From Deltaproteobacteria bacterium (GTDB lineage Bacteria; Myxococcota_A; Polyangia; JAAYKL01): DNA of 64,000 bases. The notes beneath the pieces are model-generated. The model ran no database searches, was not told the DNA's origin, and worked only from the letters and a program-made list of their open reading frames with translations. Both the position numbers and the translations under genes were made by a program. Within the stretch, counting starts at the first letter, position 1; the number at the start of each line of letters is the position of its first letter. The stretch lies in NCBI GenBank assembly GCA_030595125.1, contig JAUVDV010000010.1:1-64000 (forward strand). The letters run 5' to 3'. Of the stretch, positions 2,364 to 11,000 are shown piece after piece.

Positions 2364-2672
2364 ATGACCCTCATGGAATTCTCGATGATCCCTCTCGACA
2401 AGGGAGACAGTTTTTCAAAATACGTGTCGGCCACCCTCGACATCATCGACAAAAGCGGGCTCGACTATCGCCTTACGCCCATGGGGACTGTCGTCGAAGG
2501 AGAGTGGGACGATCTGATGACGCTCCTGTCCAGCTGCTTCAAGGCCTTAGAAGAAATCTCCGACCGCATCAGCATCAGCGCCAAATTCGACCACCGCAAG
2601 GGCAAATCCGGACGCCTTGACACCAAGATCGCCAGCGTGAAGGAAAAAGCCGAGAGGAAGATCAGAAGCTGA
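2364..2672 (+). CDS. MTH1187/YqgV family thiamine-binding protein
   Basis: A 102-residue protein of the UPF0045 (MTH1187) family, whose members form ferredoxin-like folds and have been linked to thiamine binding; the cellular role is not well defined. The N-terminal MEFSMIPLDKGDSFSKYV and the LTPMGTVVEGEWDDLM segment are the family hallmarks. A good AAGGAG ribosome site precedes the ATG. It sits 18 nt downstream of map and is probably the last gene of the leuS-map run. Its last 39 nt lie inside a 47-bp sequence repeated at 3051-3097, so the gene's 3' end marks the edge of the accessory region. Confidence 0.88.
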   Translation: MTLMEFSMIPLDKGDSFSKYVSATLDIIDKSGLDYRLTPMGTVVEGEWDDLMTLLSSCFKALEEISDRISISAKFDHRKGKSGRLDTKIASVKEKAERKIRS

Positions 2673-2680
2673 CCTGCCCT
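2634..2680 (+). repeat. 47-bp direct repeat, copy 1 (overlaps a gene 3' end)
   Basis: Positions 2634-2680 recur at 3051-3097 with two A-to-C differences. Copy 1 covers the last 39 nt and stop codon of the thiamine-binding gene plus 8 nt beyond it. Confidence 0.95.
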
Positions 2681-2697
2681 GGAAACCCATCCCCTGG

Positions 2698-2720
2698 CCC
2701 CTTCCCTGAGATGGAAGGGG
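2698..2720 (+). terminator. Possible transcription terminator hairpin
   Basis: A perfect 8-bp stem (CCCCTTCC / GGAAGGGG) with a 7-nt loop lies 26 nt after the thiamine-binding gene. No clean T-run follows directly (AACAGCTATACTTTTC), so an intrinsic terminator is plausible but not proven. Confidence 0.4.
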
Positions 2721-2821
2721 AACAGCTATACTTTTCTCCCCGGAAAAAAAATGAATTTGGCACCGCTCTGGAAGCTTTCTGCTATCATCAAATCTCGCAC
2801 GAAGAGATCTGGGAACGAACT

Positions 2822-3052
2822 ATGAAGAAGGATGAAAACAACAATGAATTAAGGTCTGAGTACAAGAGAGAGGACCTTGGCGAAGGTATCCGGGGCAAAC
2901 ACTATGAAGACTATCGTCAAGCAAACAACCTTGTGCTTTTGGATCCCGACGTGGCAAAGGCGTTTCCGGATGACAAGTCGGTAAATGATGCGCTCAAGTC
3001 ACTCATCAAGACGGATCCTGCGTCAACAGACTCAACAGGGGCCCTTGGATAG
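2822..3052 (+). CDS. Antitoxin-like small protein, apparently orphan
   Basis: A 76-residue acidic protein. The core (IRGKHYEDY, VLLDPDVAKAFPDDKSVNDALKSLI) resembles the widespread small proteins with a 'G.RGKY...LDPDVA..FPD..SVN.AL..L' pattern that are usually annotated as antitoxins or hypothetical partners of RelE/HigB-like toxins. I chose the ATG at 2822 because that family starts with a short charged N-terminus; an upstream in-frame ATG at 2711 would add residues encoded by a hairpin. No toxin gene is adjacent. The stop codon lies at the edge of repeat copy 2, so the gene sits in a 370-bp segment bracketed by direct repeats. Function is inferred from pattern only. Confidence 0.6.
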   Translation: MKKDENNNELRSEYKREDLGEGIRGKHYEDYRQANNLVLLDPDVAKAFPDDKSVNDALKSLIKTDPASTDSTGALG

Positions 3053-3097
3053 CGTGCAGGAAAAAGCCGAGCGGAAGATCAGAAGCTGACCTGCCCT
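3051..3097 (+). repeat. 47-bp direct repeat, copy 2
   Basis: Near-perfect duplicate (45 of 47) of 2634-2680. It includes a second copy of the codons for the thiamine-binding protein's C-terminus and stop, here with no gene attached. It overlaps the stop codon of the antitoxin-like gene. Confidence 0.95.
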
Positions 3098-3323
3098 GCC
3101 ATCCAAGATCCAAATCGGGCAAACCAAAGCGGCGAGGGAATGTAGCCTGGGGTTATGCGCCGGCAGCTTCAACTACACCGGCCCCGCCAATCAGCTAAAC
3201 GACGAAAACATAGTCATCCTCGGCCACCTCGACGCCACCACCCAGACCGCAATCAAAAAACAAAAACGCCTCGCTGCGTATGCCCTCGCGGAGATTGATC
3301 GGATGATTGTGGCGTTTGGGTGA
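3090..3323 (+). pseudogene. Remnant of a phospholipase D-like nuclease (C-terminal fragment)
   Basis: The frame is open from 3090 (after a TGA) to the TGA at 3321-3323 but has no start codon. It encodes AGSFNYTGPANQLNDENIVI followed by a short helix (QKRLAAYALAEIDRMIVAFG). The GSFN...NDEN pattern is what directly follows an HKD motif in PLD-superfamily enzymes, so this looks like the tail of the second HKD half with everything upstream lost. Its 5' limit coincides with the end of direct repeat copy 2, so the truncation and the duplication may come from the same rearrangement. Too short for an ORF caller. Not expected to be functional. Confidence 0.6.
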
Positions 3324-3368
3324 GAGGAGAGATCCTCTGACCTGCTCCCCAAAAACTCCAAGGAGTTG

Positions 3369-3429
3369 AGATAACGTCTGGCATCAGCGGCGGCGCGAAG
3401 CGCCGTACGTCTGCATCCGCTTGTTAGGC
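3369..3429 (-). other. Integron attC-like recombination site
   Basis: Read on the minus strand the 61-bp segment starts with GCCTAAC (fits the R'' consensus RYYYAAC, 3429-3423) and ends with GTTATCT (close to R' GTTRRRY, 3375-3369). Between them, GGATGCAG can pair with CTGATGCC leaving single unpaired G bases on each side, and GGCGC-TTC-GCGCC closes an apical hairpin. This is the box, bulged L-box and terminal hairpin layout of attC sites, and the length is in the attC range. It lies 168 nt downstream of the ATPase-nuclease stop. The R' box departs from consensus at two positions. No integrase is in the window. Confidence 0.6.
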
Positions 3430-3597
3430 AGCATTCGGACGCCAGAAGCACTTTCGGGTAGACGCGGTCGTAGGGCCAGTGATTATCGCACACTGCCACG
3501 TCGTCAGCGCGCCCGCAGCCGTTCGATTCCCTCGCGCCGAAGCTGTTGTCCCGGACGTCCCAGCCAAGCAACGCTACGGAGCGCATCAATCGACATA

Positions 3598-5604
3598 TCA
3601 CTTCACCACCTTTTCAGGCGGCGCAAAATCGTCGATCGCATTGAATACCTCCCACAACTTATCCAACTTGACGTGTGCGTCAAGGTAGTCACCGTAAGCT
3701 TGATCTGCATTAGTGAGAAGCTCGTCATAGAAGACGAGTCGCGCATCGACGGTCTTAAGGCTGTCTATGACGCCTTTAGGACCGGTACCTGACGAATCAT
3801 TCCATTCGGGCGGCGGCTTTCCAACCAGACAGATGATTTCAATAGGCCAGTCTTTAAAACTAGTCTTTTCGAGAAGTTTCTTCGCGCCGTCCCTGTACTT
3901 CCTAATCTGCTTGGTCAGGTCATCGACGGGAACTGCGACCGATGCTCGCTTCAACTCGACGATGACGTGTTTTCCGCTTGTCGTTCTGTACCCGATGTCG
4001 ATCCGCGCTCTCTTTTGTGCACCTTTCAGGGCATTTGAATTGTTCTTCAGGAATTCGTTGATTCGCGTTTCGGCGTGTTCCGAGCCCTTCGTTCGCTCCC
4101 AGCCCGGATCGAGAAGCCAGAGATGGTCGAAGATGTAGTCGCGGAGAACGAGTTCCTTGTCGTTCTGCTTGAGCTTGTTCTTCAGCGTGCGGATAACCTG
4201 GACTCTCAGTTTGACGATTTGTCCGTAGTAGCTCAACTCCAAGTCGTCGATGGTCTGAAAGATTTCTAGAATCTGTTCGAGGTTCTCGTCCTTGATGTTT
4301 TCGAGGCGATCAAGTTCCTCTTTTCGTCTGTAGCTTTCGAAGGCGAGGATGGAGGCTTTGAGTAACTCTTTCTTGTCGGACTCTTCCGGCGAACGGATAG
4401 TGTTCAGGCGCCCGATCCACCGTTCAGCCTTCTTTTTCGTGTCACCCTTCAAATCTTGAAGCCAAGCGGACACTGCCGGAACCGCTGCCGCCGTTTTGGC
4501 GCCATCGGAACGGCGCCAATCACTCCACTTCCCTGCGATGTGGCGAATTTCAGAAAGAACTACTTTGCGCAGTGCTTCGAAACGCGGGTCATCTTGCTTC
4601 AGCGACTGACGACCGCTAGTCGCGGTGTCGCCTTGGTCATCAAGATCCAGTTCCTCGCAATGCAATTCGCCGATGACGTAGTTGGCGTAAATTTCCTTCT
4701 GTCCGAATTCATCAAGGATATCTTCCTGTGCCATCTTTCCGCGCATGAAAACGGCGAGACGGTTCAGGTTGTCGCCTTCTTCGTCCTTCAACTGACTTGG
4801 GCTTGAGACCGTGCCGATCCATCCGCTGAGGCTGATGTTTGATCTCGTCAACTCAGGTTGGATCGCCTGTAGCCGGTCTTCGTGGGCGCGTTCAAGATGT
4901 TTGCACGATTTCACGAACTCGGTCTGTGCGCCATAAGTCCACAGATACTGCAACTTATTGTGATATGCGCGGTCCTCGGGTCCGATCGCCCCGCCGTTCA
5001 CGGTGACAGTGAATTTGAACTTGGGTCCAATCACTGCGAATCGCCGCGCGACCCGCCGTTTCAGGCCTTCCACCGTCATCCCAGAAAGGGATTTGGACAG
5101 GCCGGACAAGTAAATCCGTGTTCCCTTCTTGAAATCGGGAGGCCAGTTTTGGAGTTCTTCGGGTTTGTAGGGTCCTTGCGTGTTCCCTGAAATCGCTTTG
5201 CGAATGACTTCCCGATCCATCTTGAACGCAGTGTGTTCCCCGCCTTGGATCGTATAAACCTCGGCGATCTGAGCGATGGAAAAGGTAGACAACTTCCCGA
5301 TGCCTTTGCGCCCCATTGGCTTTCGTCCGCTGGGGGTGCTTGCGCCCATGGCTTCTCGCCGCTTGAACCCGACAGTCAGAAACCAGTCGATAACTCCATC
5401 ACGGTTCATACCTATACCGTCGTCGTCAATGGTGATCGTCTTCATGGCCTTATCGACCGTTACGTTGACGTTGTGTGCGTCTGCGTCCCATGCGTTAGCG
5501 ACGATCTCGGACAAGACAGCAGGAATATTGCTGTAGAGGTTGAGGCCCAAATGCTCCAAGGCATTGAGGCTAATGCTCATGATAAGTTCGCGAGGCTGAC
5601 TCAT
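3598..5604 (-). CDS. GHKL (MutL/MORC-like) ATPase fused to a PD-(D/E)XK nuclease domain
   Basis: A 668-residue protein. The N-terminus is a GHKL ATPase of the MutL/Hsp90/MORC branch: N-box E33-x3-N37-x2-D40-A41, DDDGIGM (60-66, metal/ATP loop) and GRKGIGK (98-104, lid). A central region with charged helices follows (roughly 250-480). Near the C-terminus, D536, then E550-x-K552 in HVIVELK form a PD-(D/E)XK nuclease signature, followed by a helix starting DDLTKQIRKYRD. Its ATG overlaps the methyltransferase stop (ATGA), so the two are translationally coupled. MutL-like ATPases next to C5 methylases were described as restriction-modification components and as MORC ancestors (Iyer, Abhiman and Aravind 2008). 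The restriction role here is inferred. Local base composition looks lower in GC than the flanks. Confidence 0.85.
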   Translation of the reverse strand: MSQPRELIMSISLNALEHLGLNLYSNIPAVLSEIVANAWDADAHNVNVTVDKAMKTITIDDDGIGMNRDGVIDWFLTVGFKRREAMGASTPSGRKPMGRKGIGKLSTFSIAQIAEVYTIQGGEHTAFKMDREVIRKAISGNTQGPYKPEELQNWPPDFKKGTRIYLSGLSKSLSGMTVEGLKRRVARRFAVIGPKFKFTVTVNGGAIGPEDRAYHNKLQYLWTYGAQTEFVKSCKHLERAHEDRLQAIQPELTRSNISLSGWIGTVSSPSQLKDEEGDNLNRLAVFMRGKMAQEDILDEFGQKEIYANYVIGELHCEELDLDDQGDTATSGRQSLKQDDPRFEALRKVVLSEIRHIAGKWSDWRRSDGAKTAAAVPAVSAWLQDLKGDTKKKAERWIGRLNTIRSPEESDKKELLKASILAFESYRRKEELDRLENIKDENLEQILEIFQTIDDLELSYYGQIVKLRVQVIRTLKNKLKQNDKELVLRDYIFDHLWLLDPGWERTKGSEHAETRINEFLKNNSNALKGAQKRARIDIGYRTTSGKHVIVELKRASVAVPVDDLTKQIRKYRDGAKKLLEKTSFKDWPIEIICLVGKPPPEWNDSSGTGPKGVIDSLKTVDARLVFYDELLTNADQAYGDYLDAHVKLDKLWEVFNAIDDFAPPEKVVK

Positions 5605-6719
5605 TGTGTTTCCTTAAGGTGACTATTGACTGAATTCGCGATGGCGGCCGCGAGTTTGACCGGCACGGCGTTGCCTATCAGTCGCCCTACCTTTTTGAAA
5701 TGTACACACTCTCCAGGGGCGATAAATTCATAGTCTCTGGGGAAGCCTTGAAGCAATGCGCCTTCGCGCAACGATAGCGCACGGTCCTGTTCAGGATGGC
5801 CGAAGCGGCCATTACCGAAACCGAAGAACTGTGTTGTGATGGTAGGTGAGGGCTCGTCCCACTCCATTCGTCCATAAACTGAGGAGTATCCTTTACCTGT
5901 CTCCACTTTATGGCAGTCGGCGATGAGCTGTGGCGCCCAATCTCTCCACGTGCCGCCGGGTTTGGAGAACGAAATACGCCTCACGTTAATCTCGGAAAGA
6001 CGGCTCGCTCTGTGCAGAGCGTCGGAGTCATCGACTCCGCCGTGGTTCAATGGGGGAAGATCGCCAATTTCATCGCGGACGGTGCGATGCTTTCCTTTAT
6101 GCGTGGCGCGAGGCAACTCAATGGGGCCAAGCTTCGATGCGAGAAGTACAAGCCGCGATCGTGTCTGCGCCAACCCGAAGTTAGGACCGTAAAGCACGTC
6201 CCAAACGACATGATATTCGGCATCACGCAACTTCTTGACGAATCGTTTGAAGGGCGAGCCATCTTTGAACGCTAGCAGACTGGGCACGTTTTCCATTGAG
6301 AGCACGTCAGGGCGAACCTTGTCGACGAGATTGCCGAATTGGCGGAGCAGTTGCCATTTCGGATCTTCGTTCTTCTGGTTGTAGGTGGAAAACGGCTGGC
6401 ACGGCGCGCATCCGACGAGGACGCGCGGCCTCCCCGGCGTGAACAGGCCATTGATCTCGTCCGCCTTCAACGTCGCGACATCGCGCCGTATGAAAGGTGC
6501 TTCGTTGTTTTGTTCGAATGCGTACCGGCAATTTTCGTCGATATCAATGCCGCCGACGATCTCGAAGCCCCGTTGGCGGAAGCCGTGAGACAACCCTCCC
6601 GCCCCGCAAAAAATGTCCACAACGGAAGCCGCAGGTCGCTTGCCTACCGCCACGCCTTCATTGGCCACTTTCTTCTTTGAATTCCCTCCGCGCCTCACTT
6701 TGCCTTCCTTCGATCTCAT
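5601..6719 (-). CDS. DNA (cytosine-5-)-methyltransferase
   Basis: A 372-residue C5-MTase that transfers methyl from SAM to cytosine C5 in DNA. Motifs appear in order: I DIFCGAGG (35-42), IV CAPCQPF with catalytic Cys107, VI ENV (143-145), VIII QTRSR (185-189), and X GNAVP (349-353). A target-recognition region lies between VIII and IX. The specificity cannot be read from sequence. The ATG is 3 nt after a GTTAGGC core (6729-6723 on this strand), leaving no room for a normal 5' leader if the cassette edge is there. It is the first gene of a two-gene unit whose second member is the GHKL ATPase-nuclease. Confidence 0.95.
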   Translation of the reverse strand: MRSKEGKVRRGGNSKKKVANEGVAVGKRPAASVVDIFCGAGGLSHGFRQRGFEIVGGIDIDENCRYAFEQNNEAPFIRRDVATLKADEINGLFTPGRPRVLVGCAPCQPFSTYNQKNEDPKWQLLRQFGNLVDKVRPDVLSMENVPSLLAFKDGSPFKRFVKKLRDAEYHVVWDVLYGPNFGLAQTRSRLVLLASKLGPIELPRATHKGKHRTVRDEIGDLPPLNHGGVDDSDALHRASRLSEINVRRISFSKPGGTWRDWAPQLIADCHKVETGKGYSSVYGRMEWDEPSPTITTQFFGFGNGRFGHPEQDRALSLREGALLQGFPRDYEFIAPGECVHFKKVGRLIGNAVPVKLAAAIANSVNSHLKETQ

Positions 6720-6722
6720 GCT

Positions 6723-6729
6723 GCCTAAC
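6723..6729 (-). other. Integron-like core site at the cassette 5' edge
   Basis: The minus strand reads GTTAGGC-AGC-ATG, with the ATG starting the methyltransferase. GTTAGGC fits GTTRRRY exactly, and GTTAGGCAGCAT also occurs, on the opposite strand, at the attC-like site (3423-3434). Just upstream, CTAACA and TGTTAG form an inverted pair around an 18-nt spacer. If recombination splits G from TTAGGC, the cassette would be 3375-6728. Confidence 0.5.
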
Positions 6730-6874
6730 AGTTACTCTCCAACAGTGATGTTAGAAATAATAGCAGGAAGCGGGGATGATTGACACGTTCACTTGTCCCT
6801 CCTGAGTGATGATTTAGTACTTTTGGGGCGTTCACCTGCGCCGGTTGCAGCTGCACTGTAAAAATGTCCAAAAT

Positions 6875-7150
6875 GCCGGTCCCGACCCGGTTCCCATTGG
6901 TTTGAAACCATTAAAATGCGGGTCTCGACCGGGTTCTAATTGGTTTGGGTGTTCGAAAATGCCGGTCCCGACCGGGGTTCCATTGGTTTGGGTGCTCGAA
7001 AACGCCGGTCCCGACCGGGGTCTGATTGGTTGAAACCATCGAAATGCCGGTCCCGACCGGGGCTCTTATTGGTTTGGGTGCTCGAAAACGCTGGTCTCGA
7101 CCGGGGTCGTTATTGGTTCAGGTGATCAAGAACGTCGATATGTATCGGGA
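6875..7150. repeat. Tandem array of ~43-bp units, each with a CCGGTC/GACCGG palindrome
   Basis: Core starts are at 6875, 6918, 6961, 7004, 7046, 7090 and a decayed one at 7134, giving spacings of 43, 43, 43, 42, 44 and 44 bp. Each unit holds GCCGGTCCCGACCGG (CCGGTC-CC-GACCGG), then an ATTGGTT block. The linker after ATTGGTT is of two kinds, one ending GAAACCAT and the other GGGTGCTCGAAAA. The array fills the gap between the MTase start and the 3' end of the 7160-7933 gene. No promoter or gene is evident in the rest of 6730-6874. Confidence 0.9.
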
Positions 7151-7159
7151 TTCTATCGG

Positions 7160-7933
7160 TCAGGAGGTCGGCGCGGCGGGGGCATCGGGGGTTTTGTCGG
7201 CGGGTTTCGATTTTTCAACCGCGGTCATCAGGGGTTGGAGAATATTGGTCGTGGTCTTTTCATCGATCTCCGCGATTTCCAGGACGTTCAGGAAGGCGCT
7301 GACGACGCGGATCCATTTGTTGCGGGCTTTCAGGGAATCGGATCTGGTCACGGTCTCCTTGTCGCTGTCCTGTTCGGCCAGCCTTACCCTCTTGCTCTCC
7401 ACGTTTCCAAGATCGTTGCCGGCCACGATGAACTTATCGACGGCCTGCTCCAGGTTCCCTCCCAGGCAGGGGATGGAATGGAGGTCTTTTCTGAGATCCA
7501 CGTTCAGACGACCTTCCAGAAGCTTCGCCTCGCCGGATTCCTCCCAGTAGGTCATCGTGACGATGCCCGTCTGTTTGGGAAAGATGACGCTCTTGAGCTT
7601 CTCACACATCGCTTTCTCTTCCGGTGTCTCCGCGAGGAGCGCGTTGCTCTCCAGGCATCCGAATACCCCCCGGGCCGAATTGTCGAACGCTACATCCAGA
7701 TTCTTTGCTTCGACGCTCAGCCCTTTGAGTTCTTTTTCAAGCTCGCCCTGCGCCTCGCCCGTGAACTGCATTTCGAGCACGCCGTTGTGGACCTCGTCCA
7801 GCGGACCCATCATGCCGGACAACTCTACAATTCCTTCAAGAACAGGACGCTGTCTGCCCGCATCGGTCCACTCGCCGGAAATGCCCGCCATCGATTGATT
7901 CGACAAATGCTTCAAGGTGATGTCCATCTCCAT
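7160..7933 (-). CDS. Hypothetical soluble protein
   Basis: 257 residues, no recognised domain. The start at 7933 (MEMDITLKHL) is chosen because AAGGAG lies 6 nt upstream; a longer frame to 8098 would add an unlikely N-terminus. The protein has no signal peptide or membrane segment. It is acidic and mixed alpha/beta in appearance, with one central Cys pair region (VFGCLESN, KAMCEKL), and ends in a Pro/Ala-rich tail (KPADKTPDAPAAPTS). It is divergent from the BRCT gene, with about 165 bp between starts. Function unknown. Confidence 0.75.
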   Translation of the reverse strand: MEMDITLKHLSNQSMAGISGEWTDAGRQRPVLEGIVELSGMMGPLDEVHNGVLEMQFTGEAQGELEKELKGLSVEAKNLDVAFDNSARGVFGCLESNALLAETPEEKAMCEKLKSVIFPKQTGIVTMTYWEESGEAKLLEGRLNVDLRKDLHSIPCLGGNLEQAVDKFIVAGNDLGNVESKRVRLAEQDSDKETVTRSDSLKARNKWIRVVSAFLNVLEIAEIDEKTTTNILQPLMTAVEKSKPADKTPDAPAAPTS

Positions 7934-8098
7934 CTCAATCTCCTTTTTTTCCGTAGGTTTTTGTATCGAAAATGAGGCCGAAGCGTAGGCTCGCGGATTC
8001 CTTGTGTCAATAATTAGGATGGTCGGATTTTCGTTGTCGGTGACGTTGAAGGAGGATTGAGACTTTTTTTGTCTCGGGCAGGTGGTAAGATAGGTCAC

Positions 8099-9106
8099 AT
8101 GACGAAATTAATCTGCCACGAATGTTCTGCCGAGCTTTCCGCTTCCGACGAGAGTTGTCCAAAGTGCGGCGTTAAAACGTCACATTCAAAGAAATACATT
8201 TCCGCCAGAGTAAGAGAGATCGATCGAGCAAAACAGAGACTGCACGGCATACTCTCAGGCATCTCGATTGACTACGAGTTGAGCGACACAGAGATCGGAG
8301 AATTGCAACAGTGGCTCGGTCTGCATGAGCACCTGCATTCGGTCGAACCTTTTCGCAGTGTCGTTTCGATGCTCAATCGCTACCTCGAAGACCAAGTCAT
8401 CGACGCAGACGAGAGAGAAGAACTCCTTGAGTGGAGCCTGCAGCTTATCGACGATGAGCCTCGTCCGCCGATCCTGTCGAGCTTCATCCGACGCTTCCAC
8501 GGCATATTGCAAGGCATCGCGATAGATAGAAAAATTACCGACGAAGAAATCACCGGTATAAACGACTGGCTACTGGATAACGAAGACCTCCGAACGCAAT
8601 GGCCGTTCAGCGACGCGTTCGAGCTAGTGGACAGGATTTTGGATGACGGTGTCGTGTCCGATCAAGAGAGAGCCGAGTTCATGGAGTTCTGTCGGAACTT
8701 TTCGGAGGAACCGATCGACTACCCCGTGATCCATGATGAAGAATATCTCAACGAATTCATGAGAACTGACTCGCCCATTTGCAAACCGATCACCTACATT
8801 TGCGATCGGGAATCAATGATCGTCTTCGAAGGTAAAAGTTTTTGTTTCACCGGCCCCGCCAAGGCCGGTCCAAGAAAACTCTTCCGAGGAATTGTCGAGA
8901 AGCTCGGAGGTATTTTCAAAAATTCCATCACGAAAGATCTCAACTACCTTGTGATTGGCGCGCAGAGCAGCCCGTCCTGGTACTACACGACCTACGGACG
9001 GAAAATCGAAACTGTTATGGAGGAGCGAAAAGATGGGCGGCAAACAACTATTCTTTTCGAGGACGACTTTCTTTTCCAGGCAGAGGCGTTTCTCAAGTCC
9101 CTTTAA
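8099..9106 (+). CDS. Zinc-ribbon, duplicated helical module and C-terminal BRCT domain protein
   Basis: 335 residues from the ATG at 8099; an alternative TTG at 8057 lies too close to its AAGGAGG. Residues 1-30 form a zinc ribbon (CHEC...CPKCG). Two related ~75-residue modules follow: one beginning RLHGILSGISIDYELSDTE and one beginning RFHGILQGIAIDRKITDEE, each ending in a D..E..EL/EF.E helix, recalling TerB- or EF-like helical repeats. The C-terminus is a BRCT domain (GKSFCFTGPAKAGPRKL, then VEKLGGIF...LNYLVIG) like the one in NAD-dependent DNA ligase. A DNA-damage or replication-linked role is plausible but inferred. Codon use looks more AT-rich than its neighbours. Confidence 0.82.
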   Translation: MTKLICHECSAELSASDESCPKCGVKTSHSKKYISARVREIDRAKQRLHGILSGISIDYELSDTEIGELQQWLGLHEHLHSVEPFRSVVSMLNRYLEDQVIDADEREELLEWSLQLIDDEPRPPILSSFIRRFHGILQGIAIDRKITDEEITGINDWLLDNEDLRTQWPFSDAFELVDRILDDGVVSDQERAEFMEFCRNFSEEPIDYPVIHDEEYLNEFMRTDSPICKPITYICDRESMIVFEGKSFCFTGPAKAGPRKLFRGIVEKLGGIFKNSITKDLNYLVIGAQSSPSWYYTTYGRKIETVMEERKDGRQTTILFEDDFLFQAEAFLKSL

Positions 9107-9130
9107 GTAAACTTTTTTAGGTAAACCAAT

Positions 9131-9856
9131 CTACGGACAGTTCCCCGGAACCGGCGTGCATGAGTCGTTGAAGTTGTCGTGGACAGTTATCGTGTTAGGT
9201 ACGCTGGTGAGCTGGTCCAGCAGGCCGCACACCTCGCAGTCGGGAAGAACGTCGTTATTAATGATGTAAAAAAAATCACTCACCGTGGTGAGGGCGTTCA
9301 GGCCGTCCAGGTTGGTAAGGGAGGTGTTGTCGTAAATGTACAAGGTATCGCCCGCCGAGGTGAGGGCGCTCAGTCCGTCTACATTGGTGAGGACGGGGTT
9401 TGTGTTAATGGACAAGCAATCGCCCACCGAGGTGATCCCGCCCAGGCCGTCAAGGTTCTCAAGGACCGGGTTGCCGCCGTCAGCATAGTAACCTATTCCC
9501 AAGATCTCGCCCACCGAGGTAAGGCAAATCAACTCGCTCAATTCGGTGCATAACGGGCAGTTGATATTCAGGGACCCCGAGATTGAGGTGAATCCCGCGA
9601 TGGCTGTAAGATGCGCTTGTGTGGTGATGTCGAAATCGCCGGGGTACTCCCCTTGAGTGCAATCGCTGTCGGAGTCGGTGTCAGTATCTGAGTCGGTGTC
9701 AGTATCCGAATCGCTGTCAGAATCGCTGTCGGAATCACTATCCGAATCGCTGTCCGAATCGGAATCCGAGTCACTCGATCCACCGCCGGCGCTATCGTCC
9801 GAGCACCCGCCACAAACCATCACGGTCGCCAGTGCCATCAACATCAGGTATCGCAT
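9131..9856 (-). CDS. (S/T)D-stalk lipoprotein with leucine-repeat (receptor L-domain-like) domain
   Basis: 241 residues. The signal peptide ends at a CGGC lipobox (Cys18), so the protein is probably an outer-membrane or surface lipoprotein. Residues ~28-65 are an uninterrupted SD/TD dipeptide run. The mature domain carries repeats of the type 'L.NLDGL.ALTSVG..L.I..N' typical of receptor L-domain leucine repeats, with Cys pairs at both ends (CPLC, CEVC) and a final SCTPVPGNCP. It is a clear paralogue of 41843-42787, sharing that ending and the LPDCEVC.LLDQLTS block. Ligand unknown. Confidence 0.85.
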   Translation of the reverse strand: MRYLMLMALATVMVCGGCSDDSAGGGSSDSDSDSDSDSDSDSDSDSDSDSDTDTDSDTDTDSDSDCTQGEYPGDFDITTQAHLTAIAGFTSISGSLNINCPLCTELSELICLTSVGEILGIGYYADGGNPVLENLDGLGGITSVGDCLSINTNPVLTNVDGLSALTSAGDTLYIYDNTSLTNLDGLNALTTVSDFFYIINNDVLPDCEVCGLLDQLTSVPNTITVHDNFNDSCTPVPGNCP

Positions 9857-9942
9857 TCCCCCGCCTTTCGTTTTGAACGTGAGAGCATTCTAACATCTTT
9901 GGACGATGTTTGTCTTTTGACGTTTGACGTTTGTCCTGCGCC

Positions 9943-10085
9943 GCTCGGCTGCTGCCGAGCTATGCAGGGTGGCCCGAGGACGAGATCAGGGTGATGTCAC
10001 GCCCCTTCGGGGCTTCTTTCTTTTTTTGTATCCACAGTCCCCGGGGCGGTGCCCCGGGCTTAAATATTTCAGCCTTTCAGGCTGA
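9943..10085. repeat. Cluster of four perfect short palindromes in a gene-free gap
   Basis: The 331-bp gap 9857-10187 holds four perfect hairpins: GCTCGGC-TGCT-GCCGAGC (9943-9960), GCCCC-TTC-GGGGC followed by a T-rich run (10001-10027), CCCGGGGC-GGT-GCCCCGGG (10040-10058) and TCAGCCT-TTC-AGGCTGA (10069-10085). A 7-bp direct repeat (TTGACGT) lies at 9917-9931. The second hairpin would be a good intrinsic terminator on the plus strand, but both flanking genes run on the minus strand. The cluster looks like a decayed mobile or REP-type insertion. No coding potential seen. Confidence 0.75.
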
Positions 10086-10187
10086 GAACCCAGGGCATCC
10101 AATATGACGATCAAAAACGACTAACCTTTTTTAATTCCCGCAGAATATCAGGGCGCGGCAGGCTCCGGCGTCTCCCCTACAGACTTC

Positions 10188-11000
10188 TTACCTCATGGGC
10201 TCACGGTCGGCTTCGCGTTTTTCCCTTCGCCTTCGCGGCCAGAAGACGATGGCCTCGCCGAACCCCATCCCCACGTACATGAGCAGAAGAGCGATGAGGA
10301 TATATGCGGGCGAGTACTTGAGCCACAGGAAGGCGGTGGTGCAAAGGACGATGAGCAACACAGACGCGGAGAAGGCGTTGACCTTGAGATCCTTGAACGA
10401 TCTGAATTTCACCGCGCTGACCATGAGCGCGGCCAGAACCAGCATCACCAGAGCGATCATGGGATAACTCATCCCCTTGACGGTCAATCCGTGTGAGGTG
10501 AGCCAGGGCCATCCTCCCATTGCCCTGGAAGCGACGACGAGAGCGACGATGAAGGCCGCCGCCAGCGGGATGGGGAGACCCAGCATATACTTGTCCGGCT
10601 TGGCGTCTTTCTTGGCCTTGGAGCGGTGCGCCAACACGTTGAACCTGGCAAGCCGCACGGCGCCGCTGAGCAGATACACGAAACAGATGACCACGCCGAC
10701 AAAACCAATATCCTCGAAAGCCCACCGGTACACTATTATGGCCGGCGCCACGCCGAAGGAGATAAGATCCGCGAGCGAATCGAATTCCACCCCGAAGGCC
10801 GACTGGGTCCTCGTCATCCTGGCCACCCGCCCGTCAAAAAGATCAAACATAAACGCGTAGAAAAGAAGCAATGACGAGCGGTAGACGTCCTCGTCCGTAA
10901 CGTCCACCCCAACACAACGCACGATGGCCCACATACCGCAAAAAAGACTCGCCGCGGTGAGGAGGTTGGGAAGGATAAAGATGGTTTTTTTGAGATCCAT
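10188..11000 (-). CDS. pssA: CDP-diacylglycerol--serine O-phosphatidyltransferase
   Basis: Makes phosphatidylserine from CDP-diacylglycerol and serine, the first committed step to phosphatidylethanolamine, in the inner membrane. 270 residues with about eight hydrophobic segments. The CDP-alcohol phosphotransferase signature D-x2-DG-x2-AR-x8-G-x3-D-x3-D is complete (DLFDGRVARM...FGVEFDSLADL). The N-terminal ILPNLLTAASLFCGMWAI is typical of PssA. The positively charged C-terminus (RRRREKREADREPMR) is a usual tail. A phosphatidylglycerophosphate synthase is less likely given the N-terminal block. Confidence 0.93.
   Translation of the reverse strand: MDLKKTIFILPNLLTAASLFCGMWAIVRCVGVDVTDEDVYRSSLLLFYAFMFDLFDGRVARMTRTQSAFGVEFDSLADLISFGVAPAIIVYRWAFEDIGFVGVVICFVYLLSGAVRLARFNVLAHRSKAKKDAKPDKYMLGLPIPLAAAFIVALVVASRAMGGWPWLTSHGLTVKGMSYPMIALVMLVLAALMVSAVKFRSFKDLKVNAFSASVLLIVLCTTAFLWLKYSPAYILIALLLMYVGMGFGEAIVFWPRRRREKREADREPMR

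What the first reader, a model, noticed from the sequence alone, without database searches (positions are those of the whole stretch)
3598..6719. C5-methyltransferase coupled to a GHKL ATPase-PD-(D/E)XK nuclease fusion
The ATPase carries both a MutL/MORC-type GHKL head and a nuclease signature (D536, E550-x-K552) in one protein, translationally coupled to a 5mC methyltransferase. This suggests an ATP-gated restriction-modification or defence system with no HsdR/McrB-type motor. Related MutL-methylase pairs have been noted by genome analysis, but I know of no mechanism for this fused layout.
Basis: partly seen in the sequence, partly recalled or inferred. Interest (0 to 1): 0.78.

Follow-up and report, generated by a model that had tools for sequence, protein, structure and literature searches.

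The report
SalI-like restriction-modification pair with MORC-type ATPase
These two genes are a known kind of bacterial DNA-cutting defence pair, a cytosine methylase plus an ATP-binding nuclease of the BbrUII/HgiDII (paraMORC3) family, here apparently carried as a single mobile gene cassette; the pair is ordinary, but what its ATPase does during DNA cutting is still unsolved.

Summary
Window 3598-6719 (minus strand) encodes a complete C5-cytosine methyltransferase and, overlapping it by 4 bp, a 668-aa protein with a GHKL ATPase head and a C-terminal PD-(D/E)XK nuclease. A predicted structure of the C-terminal part matches Shedu, EndoMS/NucS and FokI. D536, E550 and K552 are (nearly) invariant in 86 homologues. 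The pair recurs widely: 51 of 79 genome loci have the methylase directly upstream, and the two proteins co-diverge (Mantel r 0.73). The novelty claim fails. The nuclease scores 805 bits against NCBI's 'BbrUII/HgiDII family restriction enzyme' model (cut-off 550), a family whose methylases recognise GTCGAC, so the pair is most likely a Type II, SalI-like restriction-modification system. Its architecture was described in 2008 (paraMORC3). A relative, VcSduA (GHKL-Shedu), was shown in 2025 to need both ATPase and nuclease for phage defence; a P2-like phage record already names 'ParaMORC3' beside 'Dcm'. Two points are new here: the unit is bordered by an integron attC-type site in a genome without a detected integron integrase, and family members sit inside or beside DISARM and Druantia operons. 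Open question: how ATP gates a site-specific Type II nuclease.

The parts
5601..6719 (-). C5-cytosine DNA methyltransferase (372 aa), M.HgiDII/M.BbrUII-like
   Evidence: Pfam DNA_methylase 6.5e-57; TIGR00675 136 bits, over cut-off; conserved TRD across 19 partners of the nuclease
3598..5604 (-). GHKL ATPase-nuclease (668 aa), BbrUII/HgiDII-family restriction enzyme / paraMORC3
   Evidence: NF050001 805 bits, cut-off 550; PADLOC REase_II 2.8e-94; AlphaFold2 pLDDT 85.8
4495..5577 (-). MORC-type GHKL + S5 ATPase module (residues about 10-370); catalytic E33 at 5506-5508, N37
   Evidence: VIA-align Z 24.2 to MORC3 5ix2; motifs invariant in 86 homologues
4165..4494 (-). helical middle region (residues about 371-480) linking ATPase and nuclease
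   Evidence: DSSP of the model; lower pLDDT, about 58-83, for residues 401-510
3715..4164 (-). PD-(D/E)XK nuclease domain, Shedu/EndoMS-like (residues about 481-630)
   Evidence: separate AF2 model and PDB comparison; SduA_C found in 61 of 81 family members
3949..3999 (-). catalytic D536 (3997-3999) ... E550-L-K552 (3949-3957)
   Evidence: invariant or nearly so in 86 homologues
5601..5604 (-). 4-bp ATGA overlap of the two reading frames (translational coupling)
   Evidence: sequence
3366..3435 (-). attC-type recombination site (R'' GCCTAAC at 3423-3429, hairpin CGGCGC-TTC-GCGCCG, inferred cleavage point G^TTA between 3375 and 3374)
   Evidence: left arm 22.8 bits against attCs of same-phylum integrons; next best in 64 kb 12.5, best of 60 shuffled windows 18.2; fold of circularised site; only match of its pattern in the whole genome
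3375..6728 (-). inferred gene cassette (3354 bp) carrying both genes: begins G^TTAGGCAGCATG, ends in the attC
   Evidence: 13-bp perfect inverted repeat 3422-3434 / 6718-6730; DNA homology to L071 ends at 6716 and 3571
2675..10166 (.). 7.5-kb insertion relative to same-genus genomes, between the thiamine-binding-protein gene and the gene at 10188-11000
   Evidence: L240 and L241 align up to window 2674/2683 and resume at 10167/10187

Best explanation
It is a two-gene Type II restriction-modification system of the HgiDII/BbrUII (SalI-isoschizomer) family, carried as a lone integron-type gene cassette. The MTase puts 5-methylcytosine in the host's recognition sites, most likely GTCGAC. The nuclease subunit is a dimer whose MORC/Hsp90-type GHKL-S5 heads bind ATP and close around DNA; ATP turnover licenses the C-terminal Shedu/EndoMS-type PD-(D/E)XK domains to cut unmethylated sites on incoming DNA. 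Shown here: gene content, coupling, predicted domain folds, intact and conserved catalytic residues, recurrence and co-divergence of the pair, and the attC-type border. Taken from the literature: GTCGAC specificity of family methylases, and the need for both ATPase and nuclease residues in the architectural relative VcSduA. Inferred: that this member recognises GTCGAC, that it is a dimer working as an ATP-operated clamp, and that ATP is needed for its site-specific cutting.
For: NF050001 'BbrUII/HgiDII family restriction enzyme' 805 bits over residues 9-657, cut-off 550; PADLOC Type II REase and Type II MTase. The MTase is directly upstream on the same strand in 51 of 79 genome loci and adjacent (gap of at most 60 bp, or overlapping) in 42 of 56 viral-contig loci; the two proteins co-diverge, Mantel r 0.725, 0 of 1000 permutations as high. 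M.HgiDII is characterised as a 5mC GTCGAC methylase and M.BbrUII as a homologue (PMC5867850; PMC5005818 gives GTCGAC for M.BbrUII and reports a putative cognate REase overlapping a related MTase gene by 3 bp). Active sites conserved in 86 of 86 or 85 of 86 homologues. Folds: MORC-type head, PD-(D/E)XK tail. Architectural relative VcSduA: E27A and K557A each abolish defence (PMC12137116). Depositors named a 36%-identical phage protein beside Dcm 'ParaMORC3'. attC-type border.
Against: GTCGAC is not depleted in the window (27 found, 28.7 expected), so there is no genomic sign of long exposure to the enzyme; a recent cassette would look the same. No sequence of a biochemically characterised member was available for direct comparison, and the B. 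breve paper is not held. The window's own C-terminal fragment does not itself pass a Pfam nuclease model. Relatives sit inside DISARM (L239) or beside Druantia (L143) genes without a C5-MTase partner, so the nuclease is not always tied to this methylase. The attC fails a strict GTTRRRY test at its chromosomal R' (GTTATCT), and my strict scans did not recover it.
Confidence: 0.8

Rival explanations
1. Shedu-type direct phage-sensing nuclease: the GHKL-nuclease senses a phage structure such as DNA ends, topology or a protein and cuts without sequence specificity. The methylase is only a neighbour or protects host DNA in a general way.
For: The C-terminal domain is Shedu-like. VcSduA, of the same architecture, is described as a single-gene defence (PMC12137116). 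Some homologues have no C5-MTase nearby: 21 of 79 genome loci, several of them on truncated contigs, including copies in one Cenarchaeum record.
Against: In this branch the methylase is directly attached, overlaps by 4 bp, and co-diverges with the nuclease (r 0.725). The family is curated as a Type II restriction enzyme. The methylase TRD is conserved across partners.
Confidence: 0.12
2. Repair pair: a MutL/EndoMS-like mismatch nuclease that handles T:G mismatches arising from deamination of the methylase's own 5mC.
For: The best single structural match of the tail is the mismatch endonuclease EndoMS/NucS (Z 9.5). Vsr genes accompany several relatives. GHKL plus nuclease resembles MutL.
Against: Shedu, FokI and BspD6I match almost as well (Z 7.9-9.1). 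Where Vsr is present it already supplies that repair, as a separate gene downstream in L071. The MutL model scores only 25.9 bits against a cut-off of 180. The curated family is a restriction enzyme.
Confidence: 0.03
3. Decayed or silent system kept only as cassette cargo.
For: GTCGAC is not avoided in the window. The Vsr found downstream in L071 is absent here. Lone cassette without a detected integrase.
Against: Both reading frames are intact, every catalytic residue is conserved, and the 4-bp coupling is kept.
Confidence: 0.05

Closest known systems
BbrUII / HgiDII Type II restriction-modification (GTCGAC, SalI isoschizomers; NCBIfam NF050001)
   Same: Nuclease subunit over the equivalog cut-off along its whole length; adjacent C5-MTase; tandem, slightly overlapping genes as described for the predicted Chania member
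   Different: Specificity of this member not measured; carried on an attC-bordered cassette; the Vsr gene seen downstream in the closest relative L071 is missing here
paraMORC3 (Iyer, Abhiman & Aravind 2008, PMC2292703)
   Same: GHKL + S5 head, C-terminal RE-fold nuclease with E-D-ExK motif, association with DNA methylases, sporadic distribution
   Different: paraMORC3 is a broader class in which some members stand alone; this is the branch tightly paired with one C5-MTase type
VcSduA, Shedu type I-D (V. cholerae VSP-II, PMC12137116)
   Same: N-terminal GHKL ATPase, C-terminal Shedu-type PD-(D/E)XK nuclease, conserved catalytic Glu in the ATPase and Lys in the nuclease
   Different: VcSduA is described as a single-gene system without a methylase partner
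ParaMORC3 + Dcm of Escherichia phage PhiR44_1 (PV340563, P2-like)
   Same: 35.8% identity over 98% of the nuclease, next to a Dcm-type methylase
   Different: Genes convergent rather than in tandem; carried in a phage genome rather than a cassette
MORC ATPases (MORC2, MORC3)
   Same: Closest solved fold of the ATPase module, Z 22-24
   Different: No fused nuclease, eukaryotic chromatin proteins; a shared fold, not membership

Membership tests
BbrUII/HgiDII family Type II R-M | Nuclease over the curated equivalog score | tested here: met
   NF050001 805.4 bits, cut-off 550, model 3-659 of 659
BbrUII/HgiDII family Type II R-M | Cognate C5-cytosine methyltransferase encoded next to it | tested here: met
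   4-bp overlap; recurs in relatives
BbrUII/HgiDII family Type II R-M | Recognition and cleavage of GTCGAC | not testable with these tools
   Needs methylome or cleavage assay; a site count in the window shows no avoidance, 27 vs 28.7 expected, which is uninformative for a recent acquisition
paraMORC3 | GHKL ATP-binding motifs plus S5 domain | tested here: met
   Motif residues invariant; fold match to MORC GHKL-S5 modules, residues 10-364
paraMORC3 | C-terminal RE-fold nuclease with E-D-ExK | tested here: met
   E512, D536, E550-x-K552; PD-(D/E)XK fold
Shedu type I-D | SduA_C / DUF4263-type nuclease domain | tested here: inconclusive
   61 of 81 family members hit SduA_C (best 2e-7), but the window's own fragment hits no Pfam model; fold Z 9.1 to Shedu 8ti9
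Shedu type I-D | Anti-phage activity needing ATPase and nuclease residues | not testable with these tools
   Shown for VcSduA only
MutL | Over the MutL equivalog score | tested here: not met
   TIGR00585 25.9 bits vs cut-off 180, only residues 29-69 matched
MORC proper | MORC-specific GhXhhpXXRhl motif in the S5 domain | not tested
   Only the fold was compared
Integron gene cassette | attC with complementary R''/R' and an imperfect hairpin at one end of the unit | tested here: met
   13-bp perfect inverted repeat; 12-bp outer stem and inner hairpin on circularisation; left arm like same-phylum attCs
Integron gene cassette | Canonical R' (GTTRRRY) at the chromosomal junction | tested here: not met
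   Junction reads GTTATCT; R' is canonical (GTTAGGC) only in the circularised form
Integron (platform) | Integron integrase in the same genome | tested here: not met
   Only partial hits of at most 77 bits vs cut-off 265, read as Xer-like, in a 95% complete assembly; IntI present in 83 of 359 genomes of the phylum

The most novel reading that the evidence does not exclude
A classical site-specific Type II restriction family (HgiDII/BbrUII, SalI specificity) is at the same time a MORC/Hsp90-like ATP-operated DNA clamp with a Shedu nuclease. It would then be an ATP-gated Type II enzyme that spreads as an integron cassette and as a module inserted in DISARM and Druantia operons, giving a simple bacterial model for how MORC-type ATPases act on DNA.
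Probability: 0.45. Interest if true: 0.55.

Novelty: new member of a known kind. Interest (0 to 1): 0.3.

Why it matters
The find itself is ordinary: a further HgiDII/BbrUII-type restriction system. It is useful because it ties three strands together in one dataset: the curated SalI-like restriction family, paraMORC3, and GHKL-Shedu (type I-D) nucleases. It therefore predicts that a well-defined, sequence-specific cleavage assay could be used to ask what a MORC-type ATPase does on DNA. The attC border and the DISARM and Druantia contexts show how such modules may move.

Tried and rejected
(1) Long-term restriction pressure: GTCGAC counted in the window, no depletion. (3) Strict attC scans requiring canonical R'' and R' in place did not recover the site, and a two-arm profile failed because the right-arm spacer differs by 2 nt; the left-arm profile and the circularised fold were used instead. 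(4) Rfam gave no attC match in the region. (5) No solved structure is related by sequence to the C-terminal domain; the fold comparison replaced it. Foldseek alone gave nothing below E 0.03 for that domain. (6) 'MutL' as the identity of the head: rejected on score. (7) The B. breve BbrUII paper and the 2025 Mol Cell Shedu classification paper are not held. (8) No conserved flank with the closest relative L071 beyond the unit, so its donor context is unknown.

Full report
What is there. On the minus strand of window 3598-6719 lie two intact genes. The first, 5601-6719, is a C5-cytosine DNA methyltransferase (Pfam DNA_methylase 6.5e-57; TIGR00675 over its cut-off). The second, 3598-5604, starts at the stop codon of the first (ATGA overlap) and encodes 668 residues.

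Fold. A model built on 86 homologues (pLDDT 85.8) splits into a head and a tail. The head (about residues 10-370) is a GHKL-S5 ATPase module, closest to MORC3 (5ix2, Z 24.2, 3.3 A over 294 residues) and MORC2, then Hsp90/TRAP1. The tail, predicted separately (pLDDT 82.9), is a PD-(D/E)XK domain. Among the best structural matches are EndoMS/NucS (Z 9.5), Shedu (9.1), E. coli SduA (8.2) and FokI (7.9); Z values of 7-9 are individually modest, but the top rows are nearly all nucleases of this fold. Sixty-one of 81 family members hit Pfam SduA_C, although the window's own fragment does not. E512, D536, Q566 and Y570 are invariant in 86 homologues, and E550 and K552 are kept in 85; the ATPase residues E33, N37, D61, G98, G103 and T162 are invariant.

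Identity. The protein scores 805 bits to NF050001, 'BbrUII/HgiDII family restriction enzyme' (cut-off 550). M.HgiDII is characterised as a 5mC methylase of GTCGAC, and M.BbrUII is its characterised homologue (PMC5867850; PMC5005818). The TRD region of the methylase is conserved among 19 partners of the nuclease from several phyla, which argues for one shared specificity, but I had no characterised sequence to align directly. GTCGAC is not depleted in the window, so host DNA gives no independent support.

Recurrence. A scan of named genomes gave 79 loci in bacteria and archaea, and one of viral contigs gave 57. In 51 of the 79 the methylase is directly upstream on the same strand; in the viral set 21 are upstream and 21 adjacent in another arrangement. 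Distances between nuclease sequences track distances between methylase sequences (108 pairs, Mantel r 0.725, no permutation of 1000 above 0.09). These loci are related to one another, so the number measures co-inheritance, not independent events. One clear partner change is L072: nuclease 86% identical to the window's, methylase only 55%.

Mechanism. The likely cycle is ordinary restriction-modification with an unusual nuclease subunit: methylation of the host's sites, and ATP-dependent closing of a GHKL dimer that allows the tails to cut unmethylated DNA. Support for the ATP step is indirect. In V. cholerae VcSduA, a GHKL-Shedu protein equated with paraMORC3 by its authors, E27A (ATPase) and K557A (nuclease) each abolish phage defence without loss of protein, and infected cultures survive (PMC12137116). 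Whether a site-specific member of the HgiDII branch needs ATP to cut has not been established by anything I could read.

What was already known. Iyer and colleagues described paraMORC3 in 2008: GHKL, S5 and a C-terminal RE-fold nuclease, in neighbourhoods with DNA methylases (PMC2292703). A GenBank phage record labels a 36%-identical protein 'ParaMORC3' beside 'Dcm'. PADLOC lists the nuclease as a Type II enzyme. The finding is therefore a new member of a known kind.

Mobility. The unit is framed by a perfect 13-bp inverted repeat, 3422-3434 and 6718-6730. A repeat of that length alone could arise by chance in 6 kb; its position and the attC features are what make it notable. Read on the minus strand, the unit begins G^TTAGGCAGCATG, the last three bases being the MTase start codon, and ends in GCCTAACAAGCGGATGCAG...GCCAGACG^TTA, an attC-like hairpin. 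Circularised, the ends form a 12-bp stem with an inner hairpin. Against ten attCs taken from integrons of the same phylum, its left arm scores 22.8 bits; the next best place in the window scores 12.5 and the best of 60 shuffled windows 18.2. The pattern occurs once in the genome, no integron integrase is detected, and the chromosomal R' is not canonical. So this looks like a lone cassette dropped outside an integron. DNA similarity to the closest relative, L071 (88%), runs from 6716 to 3571, just inside those borders. L071 also carries a Vsr gene directly after the nuclease, absent here. The whole stretch 2675-10166 is missing from two same-genus genomes, so the cassette sits in a larger variable insertion.

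Wider context. The same nuclease family occurs inside a class-1 DISARM operon between DrmMI and DrmA (L239), beside DISARM genes in a Deinococcus plasmid, after DruE and DruK of a Druantia system in Rubrobacter, and near DrmA in a SAR202 genome.

Verdict. The open scientific point is the role of the MORC-type ATPase in a Type II enzyme.

Noticed in passing
L239 353-13873 (G163 C8 72000-88000): A family member (835 bits to NF050001) lies inside a class-1 DISARM operon, overlapping DrmMI by 4 bp and followed by DrmA, DrmB and DrmC: a DISARM variant with an added GHKL-nuclease.
   Followed up: partly
L143 3-8016 (Rubrobacter plasmid NZ_CP045122): The GHKL-nuclease directly follows DruE and DruK of a Druantia-like system, with no C5-MTase found in the locus.
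   Followed up: partly
L112, L114, L125, L131, L135, L136, L145 (uncultured Cenarchaeum OY282369.1): About nine copies of the GHKL-nuclease, 66-96% identical to each other, scattered over one 3.17-Mb archaeal record, usually without an adjacent C5-MTase of this type; a lineage-specific expansion of unknown meaning.
   Followed up: partly
window 6867-7107: About six direct repeats of roughly 43 bp with a GGTCCCGACCGG core, between the cassette and the ORF at 7160-8098. The genome pattern I tried for them matched nothing, the window included, so copies elsewhere are not excluded.
   Followed up: partly
window 2634-2681 and 3051-3098: 48-bp direct repeat (96%): the 3' end of the thiamine-binding-protein gene is duplicated at the left side of the 7.5-kb insertion, flanking a 113-aa ORF (2711-3052); looks like a separate insertion event.
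   Followed up: no
window 10040-10084: Match to Acido-Lenti-1 RNA (RF01687), 36.7 bits, just under the gathering score of 37.
   Followed up: no
G000 C24 5376-6534: The same genome has another GHKL ATPase with a weak match to this family (73 bits) right next to a Vsr gene, possibly a second, different paraMORC-type system.
   Followed up: no
window 9131-9856: Predicted lipoprotein with a long Ser-Asp repeat tract (SDSDSD...) after its signal region; similar repeat DNA appears near the same locus in relatives L055 and L240.
   Followed up: no
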